DNA from: Patulibacter minatonensis DSM 18081
Lineage (GTDB): Bacteria > Actinomycetota > Thermoleophilia > Solirubrobacterales > Solirubrobacteraceae
Direction of reading: 5' to 3'
Assembly (NCBI RefSeq): GCF_000519325.1
Contig: NZ_KI912613.1
Coordinates: 4,472,469-4,536,468 of the forward strand
Length of the DNA: 64,000 nt
Within the stretch, counting starts at the first letter, position 1, and each line of letters begins with the position of its first letter. Below the pieces are notes generated by a model that did no database searches, was not told the origin of the DNA, and saw nothing but the letters and a program-made list of their open reading frames with translations. The translations under genes and the position numbers were made by a program. This document shows positions 653 to 55,619 of the stretch, piece by piece.

Positions 653-1441
653 TCAGGACGCGGGAGCGTCCTCCGTCTGGGCGACGTCGGACGTCGCCTC
701 GGCGTCGTCCGCCGGGCTCTCGGAATCCGCCTCCGCCTCGGCGGGGGCGTCCTCGGCCTCGGTGGCCGGGGCGTCGTCGGGATCGGCCGGGGCCTCGCCA
801 CCGACCACGATGCCGACGTTGTCGTCGGCCTCGGCCTCGGCGTCGAGCTCCTCCTGCGTCGGCGGCACCTTCGGCGTCCACGTGCCGTTGATGACCTCCT
901 TCGACGGGCTGAGCATCATGGTCATGTTGCGGCCCTCGAGCGAAGGGCGCTGGTCGACCTGGCAGATGTCGTCGAGGTCGATGACCAGGCGCTCCAGGAG
1001 GTCGCGCCCGCGCTCGGGGTGCGTGACCTCACGGCCGCGGAACATGATCGTGACCTTGACCTTGTCCTTGCCCTTGAGGAACCGGATCACGTGCCCCTTC
1101 TTGGTGGCGTAGTCGTGATCGGCGATCTTGGGCCGGAACTTGATCTCCCGGGTGACGACCTGCGTCTGGTGCTTCTTGGCGACCTTCTTCTTCTGCGCCT
1201 GCTCGTACTTGTACTTCGAGTAGTCGAGCACGCGGCAGACCGGGGGTCGCGCGTTGGCGGCGACCTCGACCAGGTCGAGATCGCGCTGCTGGGCGTAGCG
1301 GAGGGCGTCCTCCGTCCGCATGACGCCGGCCTGGTTGCCGTTCTCGTCGATCACGCGGACTTCAGGGACCCTGATCCGGTCGTTGACACGAGTCGTGTCA
1401 CGCTCCGGCGGTCGGCGGTCGAACCTGCGCGGAACCGGCAC
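653..1441 (-). CDS. infC: Translation initiation factor IF-3 with acidic C-terminal tail
   Basis: IF-3 binds the 30S subunit, prevents premature joining with 50S and proofreads start codons. Residues about 18-190 hold the family blocks, including [34 protein letters not shown] and [19 protein letters not shown]. Residues about 195-262 form an extra tail rich in Asp, Glu, Ala and Pro, absent from short IF-3s such as that of E. coli. The start is GTG. The bases just upstream are pyrimidine-rich (TTTCCTCCTA) and do not look like a ribosome-binding site, so the start is probable rather than proven. Confidence 0.95.
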
Positions 1442-7705: not shown

Positions 7706-7779
7706 GCGCGATTAGCTCAGTTGGTTAGAGCGCACGCTTGACATGCGTGAGGTCACAAGTTCGAGTCTTGTATCGCGCA
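7706..7779 (+). tRNA. tRNA-Val (GAC), prophage integration target
   Basis: Acceptor GCGCGAT/ATCGCGC, D-arm AGCTC..GAGC, anticodon stem-loop CACGC TTGACAT GCGTG (anticodon GAC), T-loop TTCGAGT, discriminator A followed by encoded CC. From base 7731 onward the sequence is duplicated at 55531, marking this tRNA as the attB site. The gene remains complete at the left end of the prophage. Confidence 0.96.
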
Positions 7780-7819
7780 CCTCGCAGAAGGCCCCGCCCC
7801 GGCGGGGCCTTCGTCGTTC
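7731..7819 (+). repeat. attL core (89-bp direct repeat)
   Basis: Identical to 55531-55619. It spans the anticodon arm to the 3' end of tRNA-Val and the following terminator, and ends 8 bases before the integrase stop. The bases flanking the two copies differ on both sides, which fixes the limits. Confidence 0.95.
7788..7811 (+). terminator. Rho-independent-like terminator of tRNA-Val
   Basis: GC-rich 11-bp arms (AAGGCCCCGCC and GGCGGGGCCTT) with a very short loop, 9 bases after the tRNA. It lies inside the attachment core, so the phage carries its own copy. Confidence 0.85.
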
Positions 7820-7827
7820 CAGGGCAT

Positions 7828-9003
7828 CTAGCCGGCCTCCAAGCGCCGACCGAGAAATGCACTCTCCGTGCACATGGAGGCCCCAGAGCGCCGGAATCGG
7901 GCCCCTAGAGAGATCCGGTGGCGAACGTCACGGGCGGCGAGGATCGTGGCCTCCGGGTCCAGGTTCGGCTGCCCCTCGAACTCGGCGATCACGTGCCCGT
8001 ATGTCGACAGCACGAGCTTCGGGCTGTTTCGGAGCTGCTCGGACACGTAGTGGATCGTGTGGCCGGCCGCCAGGAGCAGCGACGCGAAGCTGTGCCGCAG
8101 GTCGTACGGGCGCTGGTACTCCACCCCCGCCCGCTCGAGTGCGTCGGTCCACTGGCGGGCGCGCCAGTTGTCCATCGCCGTCTTCGACGCGACGACCTTG
8201 TCCGGGCCGATCGGGAACACCAGCGCTCCGGGACGCGCACCAGGGTTCGCGCGCTTCCATGACTTCAGGTCGTCCGCCAAGGGCGCGAGCAGCTTGACGG
8301 GCATCACGTTCCCCGTCTTCGTGCGCTTCACCCCACCGATCCCGTCGACCGCCCGCTGGACCGTGATCGTCCGCAGGCCGATGTCCTGCCAGCGGAGCGC
8401 GAACGCCTCCCCCGGTCTCAGGCCCGCGTACGCCAACACCGACACCAGCGTCCGGTCACGCAGCTCGAGGCGGCTACGAACGAGCTCGACCGTTGCCGGC
8501 GCGAGAGGCTGAACGGCCTCGGTGGGATTCTTCACGACGGGGCGGACCAGGGCGACGGGGTTCGCGTCGAGCTCGCCGTCCTCCGCAGCGCGCTGCAGGA
8601 TCATCCCGAGCAGCGATAGCGCCCGGTTCAGGTTGTGTGGCCCCGCCCCGGCCTTCAGGCGCTTGGACTGCCACTCCCGTATCCGCTTCGGCGTCAGCGA
8701 CCGCAACGGGACCGGCCCGAGCTCGGTCAGGATGTGCGCGGACAGCAACTCGCGGTAGAACGCCTGCGTTCGGGGGGACTTCCGGGAGAAGTGGTCCGGG
8801 ATCATCGTCTTCTCGACGAAGTCCGCGAGGCTGCTCTTTCCACTCTCGACACGGTGCAGCAGGCCGCGCTGCTTCAGGCGTCGCATCTCGCGGTCCCAGT
8901 CGTCCGCGTCCGCCTTGAGGTCGAACGTGCGACCGCGCTGCTTACCCTCCTCGTCGCGCCACCGAACGATCCACTTTCCGTTCGGCTGCTTGCCGACACT
9001 CAT
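7828..9003 (-). CDS. int: Tyrosine-recombinase integrase
   Basis: 391 residues; catalyses site-specific recombination between attP and the tRNA-Val attB. In order: N-terminal arm-binding region (SVGKQPNGKWIVRWRDEEG), SAM-like core-binding domain (about 58-160), catalytic domain with R196 (YAGLRPGEAFALRW), a YDLRHSFAS block carrying R303, and nucleophile Y335 (STYGHV). The usual first His of HxxR is Tyr300, and the usual LGH motif reads LRN; such variants occur in actinophage enzymes. The start at 9003 has AAGGACG upstream and overlaps the excisionase-like gene by ATGA. It ends next to attL. Confidence 0.95.
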   Translation of the reverse strand: MSVGKQPNGKWIVRWRDEEGKQRGRTFDLKADADDWDREMRRLKQRGLLHRVESGKSSLADFVEKTMIPDHFSRKSPRTQAFYRELLSAHILTELGPVPLRSLTPKRIREWQSKRLKAGAGPHNLNRALSLLGMILQRAAEDGELDANPVALVRPVVKNPTEAVQPLAPATVELVRSRLELRDRTLVSVLAYAGLRPGEAFALRWQDIGLRTITVQRAVDGIGGVKRTKTGNVMPVKLLAPLADDLKSWKRANPGARPGALVFPIGPDKVVASKTAMDNWRARQWTDALERAGVEYQRPYDLRHSFASLLLAAGHTIHYVSEQLRNSPKLVLSTYGHVIAEFEGQPNLDPEATILAARDVRHRISLGARFRRSGASMCTESAFLGRRLEAG

Positions 9004-9359
9004 GCTGCTCGTCCTTTTCGCTGGGGCTTCATCGCGTCGAGGACCCGCGCGGACGCCGCGGCGTGTGGGCCGGCCTTGCGGTCGTACGCGCGCGCGGGCC
9101 CGTGATCTTTCTTGGCCTTCGGCTCGACCACCGCGTCCGCCGGGATCAGCCAGCGATGCCCGACCTTCGTCGCGGTCGGGATGCGGCCATCGCGGCACCA
9201 CCGCTCCACCGTGCGCGGGTTCGCGTTCCATCGCTCCGCCATCTCGGCGGCGGTGAACCTGCGGTCCGGGTCGATCGCGGCGACCAGCAACCCCGCGACG
9301 CGCTCAGCGCCGGCGGGGTTCTGCTCGATCTCCGCGGCGAGCTGGTCGAGGAGGTTCAT
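9000..9359 (-). CDS. MerR-type helix-turn-helix protein, probable excisionase
   Basis: 119 residues. The middle (FTAAEMAERWNANPRTVERW, then GRIPTATKVGHRWLIP) is the winged-helix pattern of the HTH_17/excisionase family, which binds DNA near att sites and directs excision. The tail is basic. It lies immediately upstream of int with a 4-bp ATGA overlap, the usual xis-int coupling. A plain transcription regulator is the alternative. Confidence 0.8.
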   Translation of the reverse strand: MNLLDQLAAEIEQNPAGAERVAGLLVAAIDPDRRFTAAEMAERWNANPRTVERWCRDGRIPTATKVGHRWLIPADAVVEPKAKKDHGPARAYDRKAGPHAAASARVLDAMKPQRKGRAA

Positions 9360-16592: not shown

Positions 16593-16838
16593 TCAGGCTG
16601 CCTTCGTGATGGGGTGGATGTCGGCGCCGGTCGCGGCTGCCGTACGGATGGATGTGGCGATCTGGTCGAACCAGGCCGCGGTCTGCTCGGGGGTGCCGCC
16701 GGCGATGCGAACGGACCCTTCGCCGAGGTCGAACGCGACGATGGTTCGTCCGTTCGGGTTGTCGGGGAGCAGGTAGGACGCGCCGACGATCACGCCGGGG
16801 TTGACGCGCAGCGGTACCGAGCCGGCGTTGCGGGTCAT
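16593..16838 (-). CDS. Small phage protein, unknown
   Basis: 81 residues. The beta-rich NGRTIVAFDLGEGSVRIAGG and helical TPEQTAAWFDQIATSIRTAA suggest a small alpha/beta fold. Overlaps the upstream HTH gene by ATGA. Unknown role. Confidence 0.65.
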   Translation of the reverse strand: MTRNAGSVPLRVNPGVIVGASYLLPDNPNGRTIVAFDLGEGSVRIAGGTPEQTAAWFDQIATSIRTAAATGADIHPITKAA

Positions 16839-17050
16839 GCCGTCTGCTCCGTGACTGCGGCGAACTGCGGGAGGTCTGTGACGTTGACCCCGAGGTACTC
16901 GGCGATCGGAAGCGCGTGCTTGGGGTGCACTCCCTTGCCTCCCTCGAAGCGGCGGAGGACGGCTTCGGGCACGTCGATCTCGTCTGCGAGGCCGCGGCGG
17001 CTCTTGCCCTCTTGGAGGTACTTGATTCGGATGTCGAGGTTGAGAGTCAT
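16835..17050 (-). CDS. Cro-like helix-turn-helix regulator
   Basis: 71 residues. RIKYLQEGKSRRGLADEIDV, PEAVLRRFEGGKGV and HALPIAEYLGVNVTDL fit the XRE/Cro HTH. Second gene of the leftward early operon; likely a Cro-type or early-gene regulator at the divergent switch. Confidence 0.75.
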   Translation of the reverse strand: MTLNLDIRIKYLQEGKSRRGLADEIDVPEAVLRRFEGGKGVHPKHALPIAEYLGVNVTDLPQFAAVTEQTA

Positions 17051-17298
17051 GCGGCCTCCCGCTGACGTTCGAAGGGGAATAGGAGGAACACGTCGGGCAC
17101 CTCGAGGGCGTTCGCGATCGCGATCTGCGAGTGAGGGGTGACGTAGTCGCCGCGTTCGGCAGCGAGAACGGTGTTGCCGCTGACGCCGGCTCGCTTGCCG
17201 AGCGCGTTAGGCGTCATGCCCATCCGCAGCCGGGCGACGATCAGGTCGCGGTTCTGGCGGTGTGTCGGTGCGCGCCTTTTGGCGCTTGTTCGCGTCAT
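17047..17298 (-). CDS. XRE-family regulator, first gene of the leftward early operon
   Basis: 83 residues from ATG 17298, preceded by CTAAGGTACGCC; an ATG at 17328 lacks a site. The HTH is RLRMGMTPNALGKRAGVSGN, then TVLAAERGDYVTP. It begins the operon that runs through SSB and Sak4 to xis-int and faces the plus-strand repressor-like gene, so it is the best Cro or antirepressor candidate. Confidence 0.75.
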   Translation of the reverse strand: MTRTSAKRRAPTHRQNRDLIVARLRMGMTPNALGKRAGVSGNTVLAAERGDYVTPHSQIAIANALEVPDVFLLFPFERQREAA

Positions 17299-17380
17299 GG
17301 GGCGTACCTTAGCATCATTACGCGTCATAGCGCGAACTTGTTGTGTTTCGCCGCGAATCGGCGCGTAATGTGGCGAGTCG
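17299..17380. promoter_or_regulatory. Divergent promoter/operator region of the lysis-lysogeny switch
   Basis: 82 bases between divergent HTH genes. A 9-bp inverted pair CATTACGCG (17316-17324) and CGCGTAATG (17362-17370) brackets the centre. TAATGT at 17366-17371 is a -10-like hexamer about 10 bases from ATG 17381, implying a leaderless plus-strand transcript. GCGTCAT recurs in the minus-strand half. Confidence 0.65.
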
Positions 17381-17737
17381 ATGGAACTCGACCGCTACGA
17401 AACGGCCCGCCGGATGCGCGCCCTCAGGGGCTACTCGCTCATGAGCCAGGCCGAGTTCGCTGAAGCGCTCGGGATCACCAAAGACGCCGCCGAGCGCTAC
17501 ATGCGCACCAAGGGGCCCACCCGCGCCCCCGACCAGGTCCTTCGCAACGCAGCCCGACTCGCCGGCCTCCGCGAAGACTTCGCCCTGGGCGAGTTCGGTG
17601 CCTCCGGACAAGACGGCAAGCCGCTCACCAGAGAGGACGTACTCGACCTGATCGAGCTCGAGGTCGCCTCAGCTATGCGCCGTGGCGGGAGTGAGCCCGA
17701 ACAAGGGCTTCCCGAAACAGGCGACCCGGCAAGCTAA
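17381..17737 (+). CDS. HTH regulator, immunity repressor candidate
   Basis: 118 residues. The HTH region is ARRMRALRGYSLMSQAEFAE, then ALGITKDAAERYMRTKGP. The C-terminal half is acidic and helical (EDVLDLIELEVASAMRR), a possible dimerisation part. It reads divergently from the early operon, as expected for a cI-type repressor. Its 3' end overlaps a convergent gene by 65 bp. No peptidase (LexA-like) domain is present. Confidence 0.7.
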   Translation: MELDRYETARRMRALRGYSLMSQAEFAEALGITKDAAERYMRTKGPTRAPDQVLRNAARLAGLREDFALGEFGASGQDGKPLTREDVLDLIELEVASAMRRGGSEPEQGLPETGDPAS

Positions 17738-18116
17738 GGAAACGAGGATCGTGCCTCTCGCAGATCCGGCCCACGTCGTTCCACCACGAACGCTCGGGAT
17801 CGAACTCAGCTTCCGCCCAGCCGTCAAGCGCAACAAGAATCGGCCGATCGCCATTGCTCTTCAACGGCCGGCGAGCATCCTCCGGCGCAGCCTGCAGCTG
17901 CGGACGGCCGAAGCCGTAGCGGCGAGCGTTGTGCTCACGGATACGGCGCGCGGCACGCTCGTACCCCTGCGACTCTGCGTAGGCCGCGGTCGCCTCGCGC
18001 TGTTCCGGCGAGATCTCATCCGACCGGCCGCGCTTCTCGAGCACAAGGTCGAACGTGTCGATGGTCTGCATGGTGCGGCTCTGGGTCCGGGCCGCCCGGT
18101 TCTGGAGAGGGGACAT
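17673..18116 (-). CDS. Unknown protein convergent with the repressor-like gene
   Basis: 147 residues from ATG 18116 (GGGAGACACC upstream). Contains SPEQREATAAYAESQGYERA, RIREHNARRYGF, and AEFDPERSWWNDVGRICERH. The composition looks coding, and overlapping the repressor-like 3' end by 65 bp would produce antisense RNA if transcribed through. No family recognised. Confidence 0.5.
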   Translation of the reverse strand: MSPLQNRAARTQSRTMQTIDTFDLVLEKRGRSDEISPEQREATAAYAESQGYERAARRIREHNARRYGFGRPQLQAAPEDARRPLKSNGDRPILVALDGWAEAEFDPERSWWNDVGRICERHDPRFLSLPGRLFREALVRAHSRHGA

Positions 18117-18438
18117 GGTGTCTCCCAGTCGTCGCTCTCTGCCTCCCGAAGGAGCTCCCCACCACACGCTGTGGTGAGCCGGCCCGAGGAGCGATCCCCA
18201 TGTGCCTTGCCGCCAAGGTCGCAGGGTCCGCGGACGGAACTGACACCGCTCCGTGAAGTCGCTGCAAAAGCCCAAGATGCCCGCCCAGGTCGCCGTCAAC
18301 ACACCCAGAGTCGTAGCGAGAACCGCTCCTCACGCGAAGTAGAAGCGGGCCGCAAACGCTGTCGCCCACTAGCGATCCGCCCTACATAAAGATTTCCCCG
18401 CTTCTACTTTCCAACAGCCACTCCGTCGAAAGCACCCC
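18117..18438. other. Regulatory gap upstream of the second repressor-like gene
   Basis: About 320 bases without a supported gene. It holds the perfect hairpin at 18160-18176 and a more AT-rich patch (TACATAAAGATT at 18383) that could serve as a -10 for the plus-strand gene at 18439. Confidence 0.45.
18160..18176. promoter_or_regulatory. Perfect inverted repeat, possible operator
   Basis: CACCACACGCTGTGGTG: 7-bp arms around CGC. No U-run follows, so an operator or RNA hairpin is more likely than a terminator. Confidence 0.4.
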
Positions 18439-18810
18439 ATGCCCATCCCCTCCCCGACCATCGCCGAAGGCGTCGACAGGCGCATCCGCGCCGCCGCCGC
18501 CCACGCCGGCCTCACCATCGATGAACTCTCCGCCGCCGCCACAGAGCTACATCCCGACGTCATCGGCCTGCGATCCGCGAACATCCGCGGCCTCGGAGCC
18601 GCACGGCCCGCCCGCGTTGAGCAGCTCGAGGCGATCGCGAACGTCACCGGCATGCCGCTCTGGTACCTCGTCGCCGGCACCGACGCGTTCGACCAGGCCC
18701 ACGAACCCCACGCGATCGACACCATCCCGTCCGAAACGCTCGCCGAGGTCCAGGCCATGCGTGCCGAGCTTCGCGAGCTGTCCGACCGAATCGCCAAGAA
18801 GGATGCGTAA
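18439..18810 (+). CDS. Second repressor-like protein
   Basis: 123 residues. The layout IRAAAAHAGLTIDELSAAAT, then RVEQLEAIANVTGMPLWYLV resembles an XRE-type repressor with a divergent HTH; the tail is a charged helix (EVQAMRAELRELSDRIAKK). It is followed 2 bases later by a lipoprotein gene, so the two probably form a lysogenic transcript. Confidence 0.6.
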   Translation: MPIPSPTIAEGVDRRIRAAAAHAGLTIDELSAAATELHPDVIGLRSANIRGLGAARPARVEQLEAIANVTGMPLWYLVAGTDAFDQAHEPHAIDTIPSETLAEVQAMRAELRELSDRIAKKDA

Positions 18811-18812
18811 CC

Positions 18813-19316
18813 GTGCGCCCCACCCCCACCGTCCCCACCGTGCTCGTCGTGCTTGCAACGACCGGGCTGTTCGCCTGCGGCTCGGACTCGAGCAGCGATC
18901 CCGAACCTCCCAGCACGAAGACGGCGAGCACGGCAGCCAGTGCTGCGGAGCGCGTCACGGGCACGAAGGACGAACGAGCAATCAAGCGGCTCGTGATCGC
19001 GTACAACGACGCCACCACCAAGCTGCCCGCCGGCAGCGCGATCTGTAACCGGCTGTCCGGACGGTTGCAGTCCGTGATCTTGGTCGAGGTCAAGAAGGTC
19101 CAGAGCGACGCCCAGTCGTGCGGGGAGGCCGTGTCGTACCTGCAGACGTCCGAGCCGGGGTACTTCTCGAAGCTGAAGCTCTCGGGCTTGGCGGTCGAGA
19201 AGGGCGAAGGGATCGCGTCCGGCACTGACAAGGCCGCGAAGACCGATGTTCGTGCTGAGCTGCTGTTCGTGAAGGAAGGTGGCCGGTGGCTGATCGACAG
19301 CCTCGGGATCGACTGA
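18813..19316 (+). CDS. Lipoprotein, probable lysogenic conversion protein
   Basis: 167 residues, GTG start. The signal peptide TVLVVLATTGLFAC ends in a lipobox (LFAC, then GSDSSSD), so the mature protein should be anchored outside the membrane. After a Ser/Thr linker comes a folded domain (DERAIKRLVIAYNDATTKL to LLFVKEGGRWLIDSLGI) shaped like the SnoaL/DUF4878-type small alpha/beta barrels. Paired with a repressor-like gene, it may mediate superinfection exclusion; that is inference. Confidence 0.7.
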   Translation: MRPTPTVPTVLVVLATTGLFACGSDSSSDPEPPSTKTASTAASAAERVTGTKDERAIKRLVIAYNDATTKLPAGSAICNRLSGRLQSVILVEVKKVQSDAQSCGEAVSYLQTSEPGYFSKLKLSGLAVEKGEGIASGTDKAAKTDVRAELLFVKEGGRWLIDSLGID

Positions 19317-19331
19317 GCGGGCCGCCGGTCG

Positions 19332-19814
19332 CTAACTCCGTGTCTTCGTACGCCCCGGACCGGCCCGCTCGACATGAAGACCCGCGAGCTCGGCGGTGTT
19401 CGCCCCCACAGCTTTAAATCTCACCGCGAACCCTGGGGTCTCGTGCGCTTCGGCGTACCGCTTGGACACACTGAGTCGAACGATCTGTGAGTCATCGGGC
19501 AGCACCCCGCCCTTCACGGCGGCGTCAAGCACGGACTTCGCGAGGTTGTCGACATCACCCGCACGGGCCGGCGGCCACCGGGGAGCACTCCGGGCAAGAC
19601 CTCCGTTCCTCAACAGGTGGGACGGCTTGCGCGGAAGCACGACCGCCAGGTCAACGACCGTCTCGACGGCCGGAAGAGCGGGTACCTTCACGGCGAGGGT
19701 TCGCGCGAGCTCGGCGGCCTGGGAGGTGTACCAGCGTGGCATGAACGTGCCGTTCCGCGTGACGCGCGGCCGCGGCGACGGCCGCAGAACACACGGAACC
19801 CACACGTCGCTCAC
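19332..19814 (-). CDS. RusA-like Holliday junction resolvase
   Basis: 160 residues from GTG 19814, which overlaps the upstream lysozyme stop (GTGA). The signature GDVDNLAKSVLDAA and GGVLPDDSQIVRLSVSKRY holds the acidic metal-binding residues of the RusA family, which resolves four-way junctions. It is placed after the lysis genes, at the end of the late leftward operon, which is unusual for an early function. Confidence 0.85.
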   Translation of the reverse strand: MSDVWVPCVLRPSPRPRVTRNGTFMPRWYTSQAAELARTLAVKVPALPAVETVVDLAVVLPRKPSHLLRNGGLARSAPRWPPARAGDVDNLAKSVLDAAVKGGVLPDDSQIVRLSVSKRYAEAHETPGFAVRFKAVGANTAELAGLHVERAGPGRTKTRS

Positions 19815-20476
19815 GACGAGCGGGCCAGCAGAGATCGGTACCGCTCGCGGCGCCACGCCTTCGCCCACCCATCGCGCTTCGCGGCGTGCCAGATCCGCTT
19901 TCGCTGAGCCCGCATGTACCGACGCAGCACCTTCCGGCGCTCGAGGTCACGGTCCTCGCGCCGCAGCTGGTCGTACTCCCTGATCCACCGCTTCTCGTCC
20001 GAGGCGTACCCGGCGAGCGCATCCTTCGGCCTGGCTGCCGACAGGAACAGCGCACGTTCGGCCTTACGCCGACGCGTCAGCCCCGCGAGAACCGACCCGC
20101 CCGCCTTGTTCCACAGCAGGAACCCGTCGGCCGCCGCGTGCATCCGGCCGGCCCGGAGCGCCCGCCCGACCGTCGACGACGCGACGATCGCGCCGGGCCC
20201 GCAGTTGTAGACCAGCGACACGAGCGCGTCGAACTGGTGCTGCGTCAGCTTCACCCCAGCGTTGACAAGGACGTTGACGTACGGGGCGTACTTGCGGTCC
20301 AGGTCCCGCGCGAGAAGCGCCTTCCCCTCCGCGAGTGTCAGATGCGGCGACGAAGGACCGACTCCCTCGATGTGGCCGTACCCGATCGTCCACACACCGA
20401 CGGCGTCACGGTACGGGCGGCTGCTGAACCCCTCGAACTCCTTGATGAGTTCGACACCGGCGTCACTGATCTTCAT
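19811..20476 (-). CDS. Endolysin, GH24 muramidase
   Basis: 221 residues. The N-terminal lysozyme domain has the E15-D24-T30 triad in IKEFEGF and YRDAVGVWTIGYGH; it cleaves the glycan strand of peptidoglycan. Residues about 155-221 form a basic, Trp-containing module (DEKRWIREYDQL to RYRSLLARSS) that also ends the second endolysin of this phage, so it is a likely wall-binding domain. No signal peptide, so export should need the holin. Confidence 0.92.
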   Translation of the reverse strand: MKISDAGVELIKEFEGFSSRPYRDAVGVWTIGYGHIEGVGPSSPHLTLAEGKALLARDLDRKYAPYVNVLVNAGVKLTQHQFDALVSLVYNCGPGAIVASSTVGRALRAGRMHAAADGFLLWNKAGGSVLAGLTRRRKAERALFLSAARPKDALAGYASDEKRWIREYDQLRREDRDLERRKVLRRYMRAQRKRIWHAAKRDGWAKAWRRERYRSLLARSS

Positions 20477-26359: not shown

Positions 26360-26418
26360 ATGACGATGTCGACGGATAGGCGACGGCTCCCGGCGTCGAC
26401 GGGACCTACGATCACGTG

Positions 26419-26748
26419 ATGCGTCGTGTTGCTTTGCCCCTCCCCCTTGTCCTGGCGTTCGCGTTTGCCGCACCAGCTGGAGCAGCGTCGTCGAAGAGGT
26501 GCAAGATCCAGCCACCCGACGGGGCCGGGTTCTACGGGCTCAAGGTCAAAGGCGTCAGCTGCGCCACCGGCAAAAGGGTGCTGATCAAGGTGCGGAACGA
26601 CCAGACCGAGTCGCTCGGCGAGTACCGCAGCCGCGTCAGGGTCGGCCGGCTGACGTTCACGTGCCGCACCACGTTCCCGGGGTACGAGCAAGCGCTGGAC
26701 ACATGCAAGAGCGGCAGCCGGCGGGTCTACCTTCGAAGCGGCGCCTAG
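26419..26748 (+). CDS. Small secreted protein (moron)
   Basis: 109 residues. Signal peptide RRVALPLPLVLAFAFAAPAG with an AGAA-type cleavage site; the mature part is basic with two possible disulfides (KGVSCATGKRVLIKV, TFTCRTTFPG, DTCKSG). It reads against the surrounding late genes and sits just beyond a late promoter motif, the hallmark of a prophage moron. A TACGAT -10-like hexamer lies about 10 bases upstream. Function unknown. Confidence 0.7.
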   Translation: MRRVALPLPLVLAFAFAAPAGAASSKRCKIQPPDGAGFYGLKVKGVSCATGKRVLIKVRNDQTESLGEYRSRVRVGRLTFTCRTTFPGYEQALDTCKSGSRRVYLRSGA

Positions 26749-34595: not shown

Positions 34596-34958
34596 ATGAG
34601 TGAGATGACGGCCCTTGAGGTCGAACGCAAAAAGCAGGGGATGTCGCGGGATCAGTTGGCGGCGCGGTCGGGGATCACGACGCGGACGATCCAGAACCAC
34701 GAGCGGTACGGCATGACGCCGCACTGGGCGGTGAAGAGGGCGCTGGCGGAAGGGCTCGGGTGCGACGTGGGTCGCGCCTTCCCGTCGCCTACCGCTGGTC
34801 AGGAGCAGGGTCGGTGCGCGGGCTGCGGCGCGGCGGGCGAACCGCTCGAACAGGTCACGACCACGACCGCGCCGATCGAGACGTTCCGGATGTGCGTCGA
34901 CAACTTCGCGTGCCGCGACCGCCGCCGCGCTGGTCAGATGCAGGAGCCGGGCGCATGA
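34596..34958 (+). CDS. HTH protein fused to a zinc-binding tail
   Basis: 120 residues. HTH: KKQGMSRDQLAARSGITTRT, IQNHERYG. Then a PTAGQEQGR linker coded by a start-associated element, and a putative zinc ribbon (CAGCGAAGEPLEQ, FRMCVDNFACRDRR). The linker suggests fusion of two former genes. It opens the plus-strand accessory island. Probably a regulator of that island. Confidence 0.7.
   Translation: MSEMTALEVERKKQGMSRDQLAARSGITTRTIQNHERYGMTPHWAVKRALAEGLGCDVGRAFPSPTAGQEQGRCAGCGAAGEPLEQVTTTTAPIETFRMCVDNFACRDRRRAGQMQEPGA
34792..34815 (+). repeat. Start-associated element, type 2 (intragenic)
   Basis: CCGCTGGTCAGGAGCAGGGT followed by CGGTG. It sits in frame inside the HTH gene at the domain boundary. 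Confidence 0.75.
34926..34957 (+). repeat. Start-associated element, type 2
   Basis: CCGCGCTGGTCAGATGCAGG, then AGCCGGGCGC and the ATG at 34955. Codes RRAGQMQEPGA at the end of the HTH gene. Confidence 0.65.
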
Positions 34959-35242
34959 TCGGCCGGTGGCGCTCGTGGAGGGCGTGGCGAGAGGAGCGGC
35001 GCATCATGGACGAGGTCCTGGAGCTGCGGGTCGCTGAGCGTGACGAAGCGCGCCGTGAGCGCGACGACGCGCTGGCGGACCTTGCGACGCTGCTGTCCTG
35101 GGCCGACGAAGCCCGGGCTCAGATCGGGCCGATCCAAGTGGCGATCGACGTTCAGAAGGGGTTGCTCTGCCATCCGGCGATCAAGCTCAACGAGCGCCGC
35201 CGGCGGGCTTCCGCTTCGAGGGCGGAGGGTGTCGACCGATGA
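34955..35242 (+). CDS. Small helical protein of the accessory island
   Basis: 95 residues, Trp/Arg-rich start (MIGRWRSWRAWREERR), then a charged coiled coil (RVAERDEARRERDDALADLA). Overlaps both neighbours by ATGA. C-terminus (SASRAEGVDR) comes from a start-associated element. Unknown function. Confidence 0.6.
   Translation: MIGRWRSWRAWREERRIMDEVLELRVAERDEARRERDDALADLATLLSWADEARAQIGPIQVAIDVQKGLLCHPAIKLNERRRRASASRAEGVDR
35213..35241 (+). repeat. Start-associated element, type 1
   Basis: GCTTCGAGGGCGGAGGGTGT, then CGACCGATG. Supplies the ribosome-binding site for the gene at 35239. Confidence 0.75.
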
Positions 35243-35514
35243 GCGCCTACGTCCTGGGGATCGGCGACTACTTCGCTGCTCGTCGCCCCGATGGCGTGGT
35301 GCTCGACGGCTCCCGAGTTCGAGTCGTGTGGGCCGACGGCGAGATGCGGGTCCAGCGGTACGCGTCCGCATCGTCGAGCAGCGGCGAGGGGTGGGGCGAC
35401 TACCTGCTGGCCTCGTCCGACGGACCCGCCCAAGCGCTCATCGACCTGATCGCGCGCGCTTCCACATCGAGGGCTACCGAGCAAGGTCAGAAACAGGGTC
35501 CCGATGTCGACTGA
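35239..35514 (+). CDS. Accessory-island protein, unknown
   Basis: 91 residues: beta-rich GDYFAARRPDGVVLDGSRVR, then VVWADGEMRVQRYAS. The C-terminus (TSRATEQGQKQGPDVD) is from a full-length start-associated element and overlaps the next gene by 11 bases. Not recognised. Confidence 0.6.
   Translation: MSAYVLGIGDYFAARRPDGVVLDGSRVRVVWADGEMRVQRYASASSSSGEGWGDYLLASSDGPAQALIDLIARASTSRATEQGQKQGPDVD
35461..35506 (+). repeat. Start-associated element, type 1 (full form)
   Basis: TCCACATCGAGGGCTACCGA, then GCAAGGTCAGAAACAGGG, ending at the ATG of the next gene. Plus-strand counterpart of the elements at 10647 and 10876. Confidence 0.75.
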
Positions 35515-35992
35515 TCCGCCCGTGATCTGGGTCGTCGTCGGCAACGACGGGCGCCCTGGCTACATCGCTGACGAAGGCGACCAGGCCGAGTACGACATCG
35601 GCCCGAACCTCGCCGCCGAGCTTCGTGAGCGCGACGCACGGCTCGTCCGCTACGCGCCTACTCCGAGGGCGGAGCCGGTCTGCCCCGACTGCGACGGAAC
35701 AGGCAAGTACACGTTCAGCGACGGCGGCGCGGGACCGGACATGACCGACACCTGCGAGTCGTGCGACGGCACCGGCCGCGCCGCTACTTCGAGGGCGGAG
35801 CCTGAGGGGATCGACGACGGCGGCGAGGGCGCAGTGCACCGCCGCGAGAACTGCGACCGCTGCGGCAACTCGGGAGAGGTCCCCGGTCGTCGGGTTCCCG
35901 GCGACGACCCTCGCTACCGGCTCCCGTGCCCCGACTGCCGCGCCGATGCGTGGAACCCCGCTTCGAGGGCGAAGGACGTTCCTGATGCGTGA
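35504..35992 (+). CDS. DnaJ-type zinc-finger protein with repeated linker
   Basis: 162 residues. N-terminal beta domain (VIWVVVGNDGRPGYIADEGD). Then CPDCDGTG, CESCDGTG, CDRCGNSG and CPDC, the CxxCxGxG zinc pattern of DnaJ-like proteins. Three copies of the start-associated linker (TPRAEP, TSRAEP, ASRAKD) separate the segments, hinting at assembly from smaller genes. Binding role only inferred. Confidence 0.7.
   Translation: MSTDPPVIWVVVGNDGRPGYIADEGDQAEYDIGPNLAAELRERDARLVRYAPTPRAEPVCPDCDGTGKYTFSDGGAGPDMTDTCESCDGTGRAATSRAEPEGIDDGGEGAVHRRENCDRCGNSGEVPGRRVPGDDPRYRLPCPDCRADAWNPASRAKDVPDA
35659..35676 (+). repeat. Start-associated element, type 1 (short, intragenic)
   Basis: TACTCCGAGGGCGGAGCC, in frame before the first zinc pair of the DnaJ-like gene. 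Confidence 0.6.
35783..35802 (+). repeat. Start-associated element, type 1 (intragenic)
   Basis: GCTACTTCGAGGGCGGAGCC, in frame between the two zinc halves of the DnaJ-like gene. Confidence 0.7.
35959..35987 (+). repeat. Start-associated element, type 1
   Basis: CGCTTCGAGGGCGAAGGACG, then TTCCTGATG. Gives the ribosome-binding site of the HNH gene at 35985. Confidence 0.75.
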
Positions 35993-36521
35993 GCCGAACG
36001 GTCGCCAAGCCGCCGCCCTCTACCTCGACCGCAACCGCCTCGAATCCGAGTACCCCGAACTCATCGGCCGCCGCAAGCTCCAAGGCCCCGACTGGACCGT
36101 CGAGGATCGCGGCTACCGGACGCCATGCCACATCTGGGCCCGCCACCTGACCAAGGGCGGATACGGCAAGACGACCGACCCGACTCGGCGCAACCGGCAG
36201 CAGTACACGCACATCCTCAGGTGGGAAGCCGTCAACGGGCCCGTCCCCCAGGGCCTCCACATCGACCACCTGTGCCGCAACCGCGCGTGCTGCAACCCGG
36301 AGCACCTCGAGCCGGTCACTCCGGCGGAGAACAGCAGGCGCGGCGAGGGCGGCGGACACGCTCAACGAGGGCGTACGCACTGCCCGCAGGGGCACCCGCT
36401 GTCCGGCGACAACCTCTACGTGAACAGCGGACGACGTCACTGCAAGGAGTGCCGGCGGCAAGAGGTCCGGGCACGACGCGCTCGGCAGGCCGAGGCAGAA
36501 GAGGGCCAGGCCGCCGCCTAA
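35985..36521 (+). CDS. HNH endonuclease with C-terminal zinc module
   Basis: 178 residues from ATG 35985 (GAAGGACG upstream). Homing-type HNH_3 pattern: PCHIWARHLTKGGYGK, GLHIDHLCRNRACCNPEHLE, PVTPAENSRRG. A second Cys/His block (THCPQGHPLSGDNLYVNSGR, then HCKECRRQE) is a small zinc module often found in phage homing nucleases. Probably moves with, or cuts, invading DNA. Overlaps the upstream gene. Confidence 0.85.
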   Translation: MREPNGRQAAALYLDRNRLESEYPELIGRRKLQGPDWTVEDRGYRTPCHIWARHLTKGGYGKTTDPTRRNRQQYTHILRWEAVNGPVPQGLHIDHLCRNRACCNPEHLEPVTPAENSRRGEGGGHAQRGRTHCPQGHPLSGDNLYVNSGRRHCKECRRQEVRARRARQAEAEEGQAAA

Positions 36522-36536
36522 CCGCCCCGCCTCATG

Positions 36537-36550
36537 CGAACATTTGTTCG
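36537..36550. promoter_or_regulatory. LexA-type SOS box
   Basis: CGAACATTTGTTCG: perfect inverted repeat matching the CGAAC-N4-GTTCG consensus of Gram-positive and actinobacterial LexA. It lies directly before ATG 36552, so bound LexA would block this promoter and damage would release it. Confidence 0.75.
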
Positions 36551-36551
36551 T

Positions 36552-36848
36552 ATGGGGCAGGCAGAGCAGCGGCAAGTACGGACCGGAGTCGCGGACCGCG
36601 TGAAGCGGGAGCAGCAGATCCGCGACATGCAGGACCGCCGGCTCTGGGAGATCGGCCAACGCGTCCGCGCGCTCGACGAGCACGACCGCCGGCGCGCGGG
36701 CCTCGAGCGGGCACTGCGGTGCGATGTCGGCCTGGCGATCCTGAACGCCGATCCACCGTCGGACGAGGAGGTCGCGGCGAAGGCCCGCTGGTCGGTCGCC
36801 GATGTTGAGCGGCTCCGTCAGGACATCAAGGACGCCGACCCGAAGTAG
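36552..36848 (+). CDS. Small helical protein under a LexA-type box
   Basis: 98 residues from ATG 36552; an ATG at 36534 would put the box inside the gene. Charged and helical (VADRVKREQQIRDMQDRRLW), ending SDEEVAAKARWSVADVERLR. No Shine-Dalgarno precedes the start, so it may be leaderless. Probably induced on DNA damage; function unknown, but a role in induction or host take-over is possible. Confidence 0.65.
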   Translation: MGQAEQRQVRTGVADRVKREQQIRDMQDRRLWEIGQRVRALDEHDRRRAGLERALRCDVGLAILNADPPSDEEVAAKARWSVADVERLRQDIKDADPK

Positions 36849-36888
36849 CGACGCTTGGGTTTTTGGGTCCGATGTGCATGCTGGGCCG

Positions 36889-37065
36889 ATGTTCGAGCTT
36901 GAGACCCATGTGACGCACCTCTTCGACTGGCCCGGGTGGGTCGGGGTGGTGCAGGACTACCACGGCGACGGCCGGTACCGCGTCCGCTGGGAGAAGCGCG
37001 GCAAGCTGGCCGTGATTCGGACGGTGCGAGAGGAGGAACTGGTGCCCGCTCCCGCGCCGTCCTGA
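36889..37065 (+). CDS. Small KOW/SH3-like protein
   Basis: 58 residues: MFELETHVTHLFDWPGWVGV, then VQDYHGDGRYRVRWEKRG, a short beta-barrel pattern. Last gene of the plus-strand island, 40 bases after the LexA-box gene. Function unknown. Confidence 0.6.
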   Translation: MFELETHVTHLFDWPGWVGVVQDYHGDGRYRVRWEKRGKLAVIRTVREEELVPAPAPS

Positions 37066-55530: not shown

Positions 55531-55619
55531 CGCACGCTTGACATGCGTGAGGTCACAAGTTCGAGTCTTGTATCGCGCACCTCGCAGAAGGCCCCGCCCC
55601 GGCGGGGCCTTCGTCGTTC
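55531..55619 (+). repeat. attR core (89-bp direct repeat)
   Basis: Identical to 7731-7819. Contains only the 3' two-thirds of tRNA-Val plus its terminator, so it is not a working tRNA gene. Confidence 0.95.
55588..55611 (+). terminator. Duplicate tRNA-Val terminator in attR
   Basis: Same hairpin as 7788-7811. It separates the prophage end from the convergent host gene. Confidence 0.8.

What the first reader, a model, noticed from the sequence alone, without database searches (positions are those of the whole stretch)
18439..19316. Repressor-like gene paired with a lipoprotein
The genes are 2 bases apart on the plus strand, the only clearly lysogenic orientation here. A surface lipoprotein co-expressed with a repressor suggests superinfection exclusion or another lysogenic trait.
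Basis: inference. Interest (0 to 1): 0.5.

Follow-up and report, generated by a model that had tools for sequence, protein, structure and literature searches.

The report
Prophage lipoprotein in lysogenic cargo slot
A dormant virus in a soil bacterium carries, beside its on/off switch, a small gene pair that probably makes its host display a surface protein, and related dormant viruses carry different exported proteins at the same spot, which may help infected cells keep out rival viruses.

Summary
The pair is real: 18439-18810(+) encodes a Cro/CI-type helix-turn-helix protein and 18813-19316(+), two bases on, a 167-aa lipoprotein, the only one of 312 ORFs in the window with a lipoprotein signal. 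Both lie in a 47.9-kb prophage of a sheathed-tail phage in a tRNA-Val gene of a Patulibacter (genus inferred). The pair is not the only lysogenic-strand element, and the switch itself is more likely 17381(+) against 17047/16835(-).

New here: (1) the lipoprotein is a distant member of a host family of exported NTF2-like lipoproteins; (2) a perfect 13-bp inverted repeat, unique in the genome in this arrangement, brackets the likely promoter; (3) in 5 of 5 prophages found with this switch, the lysogenic strand carries an exported protein within 1.5 kb of the cro-like gene, each unrelated to the others (NTF2-like, small and PASTA lipoproteins, a Cys-rich protein, a trypsin), against 1 of 12 other XRE loci. 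Best reading: lysogenically expressed cargo acting at the envelope, most likely superinfection exclusion, which is untested. It resembles Ltp systems in layout but is not a member.

The parts
18439..18810 (+). HTH (Cro/CI-type, XRE-like) regulator, 123 aa
18813..19316 (+). Exported NTF2-like lipoprotein, 167 aa: signal and lipobox (Cys 22), Ser/Thr/Pro-rich spacer, domain with the two cysteines that are invariant in the host family
18337..18349 (+). Left arm of a perfect 13-bp inverted repeat, candidate operator
18397..18409 (-). Right arm of the inverted repeat; an AT-rich stretch between the arms (about 18383-18394) may hold the -10 region (inference)
17381..17737 (+). HTH gene, likely main (CI-like) repressor of the switch
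   Evidence: HTH_31 4.4e-6; relative in G035
17047..17328 (-). Cro-like HTH gene, divergent from 17381
16835..17050 (-). Second minus-strand HTH gene, overlapping the cro-like gene by 4 bases
   Evidence: HTH_3 3.1e-4, just below Pfam's cut-off
17673..18116 (-). Probable gene of unknown function between the switch and the pair (147 aa), convergent with 17381
   Evidence: composition only; no family match
19332..19868 (-). RusA-like resolvase, convergent with the lipoprotein gene
7731..7819 (+). Left attachment repeat (89 bp), within the 3' part of a tRNA-Val gene and beyond
55531..55619 (+). Right attachment repeat, identical to the left
7828..9231 (-). Integrase

Best explanation
The pair is a lysogeny-expressed cargo cassette ('moron') of a temperate phage. 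A promoter bracketed by a 13-bp inverted repeat drives a short HTH regulator, which probably sets its own level through those sites, and a co-transcribed lipoprotein. The lipoprotein is exported, lipid-anchored on the outside of the membrane, and holds an NTF2-like domain, taken from the host's own lipoprotein family, on a flexible spacer. There it probably blocks a step of adsorption or DNA entry by other phages (superinfection exclusion). Shown by computation: genes, signal pattern, family, inverted repeat, prophage, recurrence of exported proteins at this place. Inferred: expression in the lysogen, operator function, surface location, origin from the host, exclusion. Confidence given is for the whole chain including exclusion; for 'lysogenic-strand cargo encoding an exported NTF2-like lipoprotein' I would say 0.85.
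For: Gap of 2 bases, ribosome-binding site. Lipoprotein pattern in 1 of 312 ORFs. Host-family profile of 23 sequences: 27.0 bits against 8.1 for the best of 3000 shuffles; hhalign probability 95.7, E=9e-9; both family cysteines present. 13-bp inverted repeat: 0 of 400 shuffles, 1 of 298 tiles of the prophage, once in the genome. Exported ORF of >=100 aa on the divergent strand within 2 kb of the cro-like gene in 5 of 5 switch loci, 1 of 12 other XRE loci. The five cargo proteins are mutually unrelated, which suggests replacement under selection for export rather than descent. Ltp precedent: lysogeny-module lipoprotein, transcribed in the prophage, prevents DNA injection (PMC3952083, passages).
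Against: No expression data. No structure: AlphaFold2 of the lipoprotein on one sequence failed (pLDDT 38). No relative of the lipoprotein in 50,697 phage records and only the strain's own record in viral contigs. The HTH gene's only relative has no lipoprotein beside it and no such inverted repeat, so the two genes are not a conserved unit; no repeat of >=10 bp lies upstream of the other four cargo genes. The slot test is post hoc on five loci. Host relatives of the lipoprotein (40 of 61 genomes) have no known link to phage exclusion.
Confidence: 0.42

Rival explanations
1. Lysogenic conversion for the host rather than phage exclusion: the lipoprotein, like its host relatives, serves envelope upkeep, ligand binding or stress survival of the lysogen.
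For: It belongs to a family that hosts use themselves (40 of 61 genomes, 5 places in the own genome). Other cargoes are a trypsin and a PASTA protein, which also have host-type roles.
Against: Place beside the immunity switch and turnover of unrelated cargoes resemble exclusion genes at least as well; no phenotype known.
Confidence: 0.33
2. 18439 is the true immunity repressor and the lipoprotein simply rides on its transcript.
For: HTH gene with a bracketing inverted repeat; expression with the repressor would follow at once.
Against: 17381(+) faces the cro-like tandem across 52 bp, and that trio, not 18439, recurs in G035. 18439 has relatives in 1 other of 232 genomes of the order.
Confidence: 0.12
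3. A toxin-antitoxin or Rex-like two-gene defence: HTH protein as sensor or antitoxin, membrane-targeted partner as effector.
For: A small HTH gene directly before a membrane-targeted protein; [quoted passage not shown]
Against: No PADLOC match for either protein at E<=1; no toxin or Rex family in Pfam or NCBIfam; the partner has a lipoprotein signal, not the several membrane spans of RexB-like proteins (recalled).
Confidence: 0.06
4. Relic: a host gene picked up by chance and not expressed.
For: No related phage carries it; dN/dS cannot be measured for the lipoprotein.
Against: Intact signal, spacer, domain, ribosome-binding site and codon composition; recurrence of exported genes at the place.
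Confidence: 0.07

Closest known systems
Ltp-type superinfection-exclusion lipoproteins (Streptococcus thermophilus phage TP-J34 and relatives; PMC3952083, passages seen)
   Same: Lipid anchor, Ser-rich spacer, outward domain; gene in the lysogeny module, on the repressor's strand
   Different: The active domain of Ltp is a repeat domain; here it is NTF2-like. ltp lies between integrase and the CI operon; here the integrase is 9 kb away on the other strand and an extra HTH gene precedes the lipoprotein
Host NTF2-like exported lipoproteins of Solirubrobacterales (DUF4878/Lumazine_bd_2/DUF4440-like)
   Same: Signal, lipobox, two invariant cysteines, C-terminal G-x-W-x-I/V motif
   Different: Encoded by a prophage, far in sequence (about 20-30% identity)
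Repressor-linked or lysogenically expressed actinophage defence genes (Sbash 30/31, CarolAnn 43/44; PMC6426596, passages seen)
   Same: Expressed in the lysogen, in CarolAnn together with the repressor
   Different: A RexAB-like cytoplasmic plus membrane pair; no exported lipoprotein (the word lipoprotein does not occur in the main text)

Membership tests
Ltp-type Sie lipoproteins | Lipid anchor and Ser-rich spacer | tested here: met
   Pattern match and spacer GSDSSSDPEPPSTKTASTAAS; anchor not shown experimentally
Ltp-type Sie lipoproteins | Ltp repeat domain | tested here: not met
   No Ltp model among Pfam matches at E<=1 or, for the domain, E<=10; the domain fits the NTF2-like family instead
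Ltp-type Sie lipoproteins | Gene in the lysogeny module on the repressor strand | tested here: met
   1.1 kb after the end of 17381
Ltp-type Sie lipoproteins | Blocks DNA injection by other phages | not testable with these tools
   Needs infection assays
NTF2-like exported lipoprotein family | Sequence-profile relationship and two conserved cysteines | tested here: met
NTF2-like exported lipoprotein family | NTF2 fold | tested here: inconclusive
   Own model failed (pLDDT 38); family members match NTF2-like Pfam models and the family profile matches de novo NTF2 chains weakly, with unrelated chains among the hits too
Cro/CI (XRE) regulators (18439 protein) | HTH domain | tested here: met
   PHROG 1.4e-5; model and PDB matches, weak E-values; Pfam gave no HTH match
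Cro/CI (XRE) regulators (18439 protein) | Acts as the phage's immunity repressor | not testable with these tools
   Position argues for 17381 instead
Toxin-antitoxin or Rex-like pair | Match to a known toxin, RexA or RexB family | tested here: not met

The most novel reading that the evidence does not exclude
Temperate phages of the window's order (Solirubrobacterales, name recalled) share a diversifying export slot beside their immunity switch. Unrelated envelope proteins (NTF2-like, PASTA and small lipoproteins, Cys-rich proteins, trypsin-like proteases), drawn from the hosts' own exported families, are swapped in and out there and expressed in the lysogen to remodel the cell surface against competing phages.
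Probability: 0.4. Interest if true: 0.7.

Novelty: new variant of a known kind. Interest (0 to 1): 0.48.

Why it matters
Phages of this deep actinobacterial lineage are almost unstudied: in the paper library, Patulibacter with prophage gave 1 paper and NTF2-like, lipoprotein, prophage and Actinobacteria together gave none. If the slot is a lysogenic export locus, its position predicts which prophage genes act on the cell surface, gives a short list of candidate exclusion factors (including a phage-borne trypsin), and suggests that phages use the hosts' own lipoprotein families against rival phages.

Tried and rejected
Tried without result: structure prediction of the lipoprotein from one sequence (pLDDT 38). 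Relatives in phage records: none for either protein. Relatives in viral contigs: only the strain's own prophage record. Relatives of the Sak4-like gene for synteny: only the same record. A consensus sigma-70 scan of 16800-20000 found none. A hairpin after the lipoprotein folds no better than shuffles (z 0.34), so no terminator is claimed. The 52-bp switch spacer has no notable inverted repeat of its own (5 bp; 322 of 400 shuffles reach it), though a 9-bp pair spans it (17316/17362). One relative of the trypsin cargo in phage records (Rhodococcus phage Shagrat, E=1e-3), none in viral contigs.

Considered and rejected or ranked low: 18439 as sole repressor; toxin-antitoxin or Rex-like pair; Ltp membership; relic. 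Two weak lipoprotein hits (G040, G035; E about 8e-4): the G040 match contains stop codons and long ORFs lie across it; the G035 one (L004) was not followed up. Both were set aside as probable chance.

Weak cro-like hits. (10 of 399 genomes at E<=1e-5): I kept G000, G035, G393 and G025 (E<=2.4e-8) and fetched two of the other six (G034, G063). (34 of 232 at E<=1e-6): I kept the five at E<=1e-21 and had regions of 11 of the other 29; 18 of those 29, and G201, G220, G234, G297, were not fetched. The 12 fetched ones (L073, L074, L109-L118) served as the control. By eye on gene calls I saw no divergent-HTH switch in them, but that gene caller also misses some HTH genes, so this is not a strict exclusion. 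L115 has only 53 bp of room on the tested strand, so the control is 1 of 11 with room; the one hit (L114) is a 556-aa lipoprotein.

Rows dropped before counts: seven host proteins (two-domain or poorly matching: L032, L040, L041, L044, L048, L051, L054) were left out of the 23-sequence profile. L018 was added to make the 24-row A3. L018 and L022 were first found through the window protein, so the family seed is not fully independent of it.

Full report
Setting. The window is G000:C1:4472469-4536468 of a 5.52-Mb single-contig genome. A prophage of about 47.9 kb lies between two identical 89-bp repeats, 7731-7819 and 55531-55619, which cover the 3' part of a tRNA-Val gene. It has an integrase at 7828-9231(-), tail sheath and tail tube, portal, terminase and major head protein: a sheathed-tail phage. 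These genes are on the minus strand.

The pair. 18439-18810(+) and 18813-19316(+) are separated by 2 bases; AAGGA stands 9 bases before the GTG of the second. Codon-position G+C is 0.73/0.50/0.86 and 0.60/0.52/0.87. The first protein matches a PHROG of transcriptional repressors (1.4e-5) but no HTH model of Pfam. Its model (two-sequence alignment, mean pLDDT 75) resembles XRE regulators and lambda/434/SinR-type domains, with best E 0.047. One relative, about 61-62% identical, was found: in 1 other of 61 relatives, 1 other of 232 genomes of the order, and 1 locus of the genome-contig scan, all the same gene. It lies in another prophage of the genus; no lipoprotein pattern occurs among 104 ORFs of the 19.9-kb stretch around it, and the next gene, on the other strand, looks SecB-like (by eye). 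dN is 0.33 and dS 1.09 over 117 codons.

The switch. 17381-17737(+) faces 17047-17328(-) and 16835-17050(-) across 52 bp; all three show HTH similarity. This is the classic layout of repressor and Cro (recalled). The trio recurs in G035, with CI-like proteins 56% identical over 63 aa and cro-like proteins about 67% identical. The pair at 18439 is thus beside, not identical with, the likely main switch. 'Only lysogenic orientation' is wrong, since 17381 and genes at 34596-37065 are also on the plus strand.

Promoter region. AAGTAGAAGCGGG (18337-18349) and its perfect complement (18397-18409) lie 47 bp apart upstream of 18439. None of 400 shuffles of the region gave a 13-bp repeat, and 1 of 298 overlapping tiles of the prophage holds one. 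The arrangement occurs once in the genome. An AT-rich stretch between the arms could hold the -10 region (inference; the sigma-70 scan found nothing). The upstream region of the G005 relative has only 9-bp repeats, and the 300 bp upstream of the other four cargo genes has none of 10 bp or more, so this element belongs to this cassette alone.

The lipoprotein. A Gram-positive lipoprotein pattern (written from memory of G+LPP) matches 1 of 312 ORFs of at least 80 aa in six frames of the window, this one. Direct searches found little: no phage record, DUF3828 at E=0.03, and NCBIfam lipoprotein models that match the signal region below their cut-offs. A weak hit in G006 (E=0.137) gave a two-row profile, which found a lipoprotein in G011 (E=0.005). 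That protein alone finds relatives at E<=0.01 in 40 of 61 genomes, with five places in the window's own genome. A profile of 23 of these gives the phage protein 27.0 bits against 8.1 for the best of 3000 shuffles; among 579 window frames of at least 60 aa, only the protein's own frame appears in the listed top rows. hhalign gives probability 95.7 and E=9e-9. The two invariant cysteines of the 24-row alignment are both present. Members match DUF4878 (7 of 24), Lumazine_bd_2 (6 of 24) and DUF4440 (5 of 24) at E<=1. The family profile's best PDB matches are a designed cortisol binder (0.0032) and a de novo NTF2 protein (0.013), with unrelated chains such as ribosomal S20 lower down. No PHROG matches more than 1 of the 24 (best 0.012). 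So it is a host-type exported NTF2-like lipoprotein carried by a phage; the fold itself is not shown.

A recurring slot. G035 was found through the CI-like protein (E=6.4e-17). A two-row cro-like profile searched in 399 genomes of the class then gave G393 (3.5e-14) and G025 (2.4e-8) besides six hits near 1e-6 to 1e-5. A four-row profile in 232 genomes of the order added G006 (1.3e-21) besides 29 weaker genomes. The four lie among phage genes: Erf-like annealing proteins in L060, L071 and L108, a serine integrase in L072, a tape measure protein in L060; the G035 locus is also in a viral-contig record. The gene facing the cro-like gene has an HTH match in G393 (1.9e-7) and G006 (1.2e-4), is related to 17381 in G035, and has no Pfam match in G025, where HTH identity is by eye.

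In each, that gene is followed on its own strand by an exported protein. G035, L058:804 to about 1181-1205(-): a small Cys-containing lipoprotein, with only moderate coding composition. G025, L072:7479-7916(+): a PASTA lipoprotein (1.6e-6), then two ORFs with hydrophobic stretches. G393, L071:4942-5604(-): a secreted Cys-rich protein without Pfam match. G006, L108:7900-8763(+): a secreted trypsin-like protease (PF00089, 3.3e-35). Gaps to the repressor-like gene are about 0.2, 0.3, 0.2 and 0.8 kb, and 1.1 kb in the window, which suggests separate promoters.

Controls. The lipoprotein pattern hits 1 of 90 ORFs in L060 and 1 of 70 in L072, both at this place, and 0 of 68, 104, 63 and 53 in L071, L007, L073 and L074. 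With a rule for lipoprotein or strict Sec signals on ORFs of at least 100 aa, a random anchor has such an ORF within 1150 bp downstream with probability 0.056 (window), 0.028 (G035), 0.046 (G393), 0.093 (G025) and 0.044 (G006); the product for the four that did not prompt the search is about 5e-6. Anchored on the cro-like gene, an exported ORF lies on the divergent strand within 2 kb in 5 of 5 switch loci and in 1 of 12 other XRE loci, one of which has no room. Against this: the rules and distances were set after seeing the loci, five loci are few, and the composition-based gene caller did not pick the cargo ORFs of G035, G025 and G393. Among 138 genes that it did call in six regions, 9 look exported by a looser rule, 2 of them slot genes.

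The cargo proteins are not alike (best pair E=0.11). In phage records the G393 and G025 cargoes have no relative at E<=1e-3 and the trypsin has one, at 1e-3; the G035 cargo was not searched there.

Reading. Export is the one shared property, so the site of action is the envelope; strand and place argue for expression in the lysogen. By analogy with Ltp, which is transcribed in the prophage and keeps phage DNA out (PMC3952083, passages), and with actinophage defence genes coexpressed with a repressor (PMC6426596, passages), superinfection exclusion comes first and host-serving conversion close behind. Neither is tested. It works like an Ltp system in anatomy; it is not a member, as the domain differs.

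Literature. Listings (titles and abstract starts only, apart from passages of the two papers named) showed no description of NTF2-like phage lipoproteins or of such a slot in these phages; the library lacks most subscription papers.

Noticed in passing
window 26416-26748 (+): A 110-aa ORF with a secretion signal and several cysteines, antisense to the tail genes. In the G005 prophage (L007:7577-8056, -) an antisense Cys-containing ORF with a signal-like stretch follows the tail gene that looks equivalent by eye. The two proteins show no BLAST similarity. Possible second export slot.
   Followed up: partly
window 34596-37065 (+): A second plus-strand cluster inside the late region: an HTH regulator, a zinc-finger protein matching anti-TRAP (PF15777, 7.6e-8) and DnaJ zinc-finger models, and an HNH nuclease.
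   Followed up: partly
L108:7900-8763 (+), genome G006: A prophage-borne secreted trypsin-like protease (PF00089, 3.3e-35) beside the immunity switch; one weak relative in phage records, Rhodococcus phage Shagrat.
   Followed up: partly
window, whole: AGTAGAAGCGG with up to 2 mismatches occurs 24 times against 10.3 expected (0 of 100 shuffles reach it); only the two arms at 18337/18397 are exact. The excess may be codon bias.
   Followed up: no
window 17673-18116 (-): Probable 147-aa gene of unknown family between the switch and the pair, overlapping the end of 17381-17737.
   Followed up: partly
L072:10282 (+), genome G025: A further ORF of 123 aa with a secretion signal on the repressor strand, about 3 kb after the PASTA lipoprotein.
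   Followed up: no
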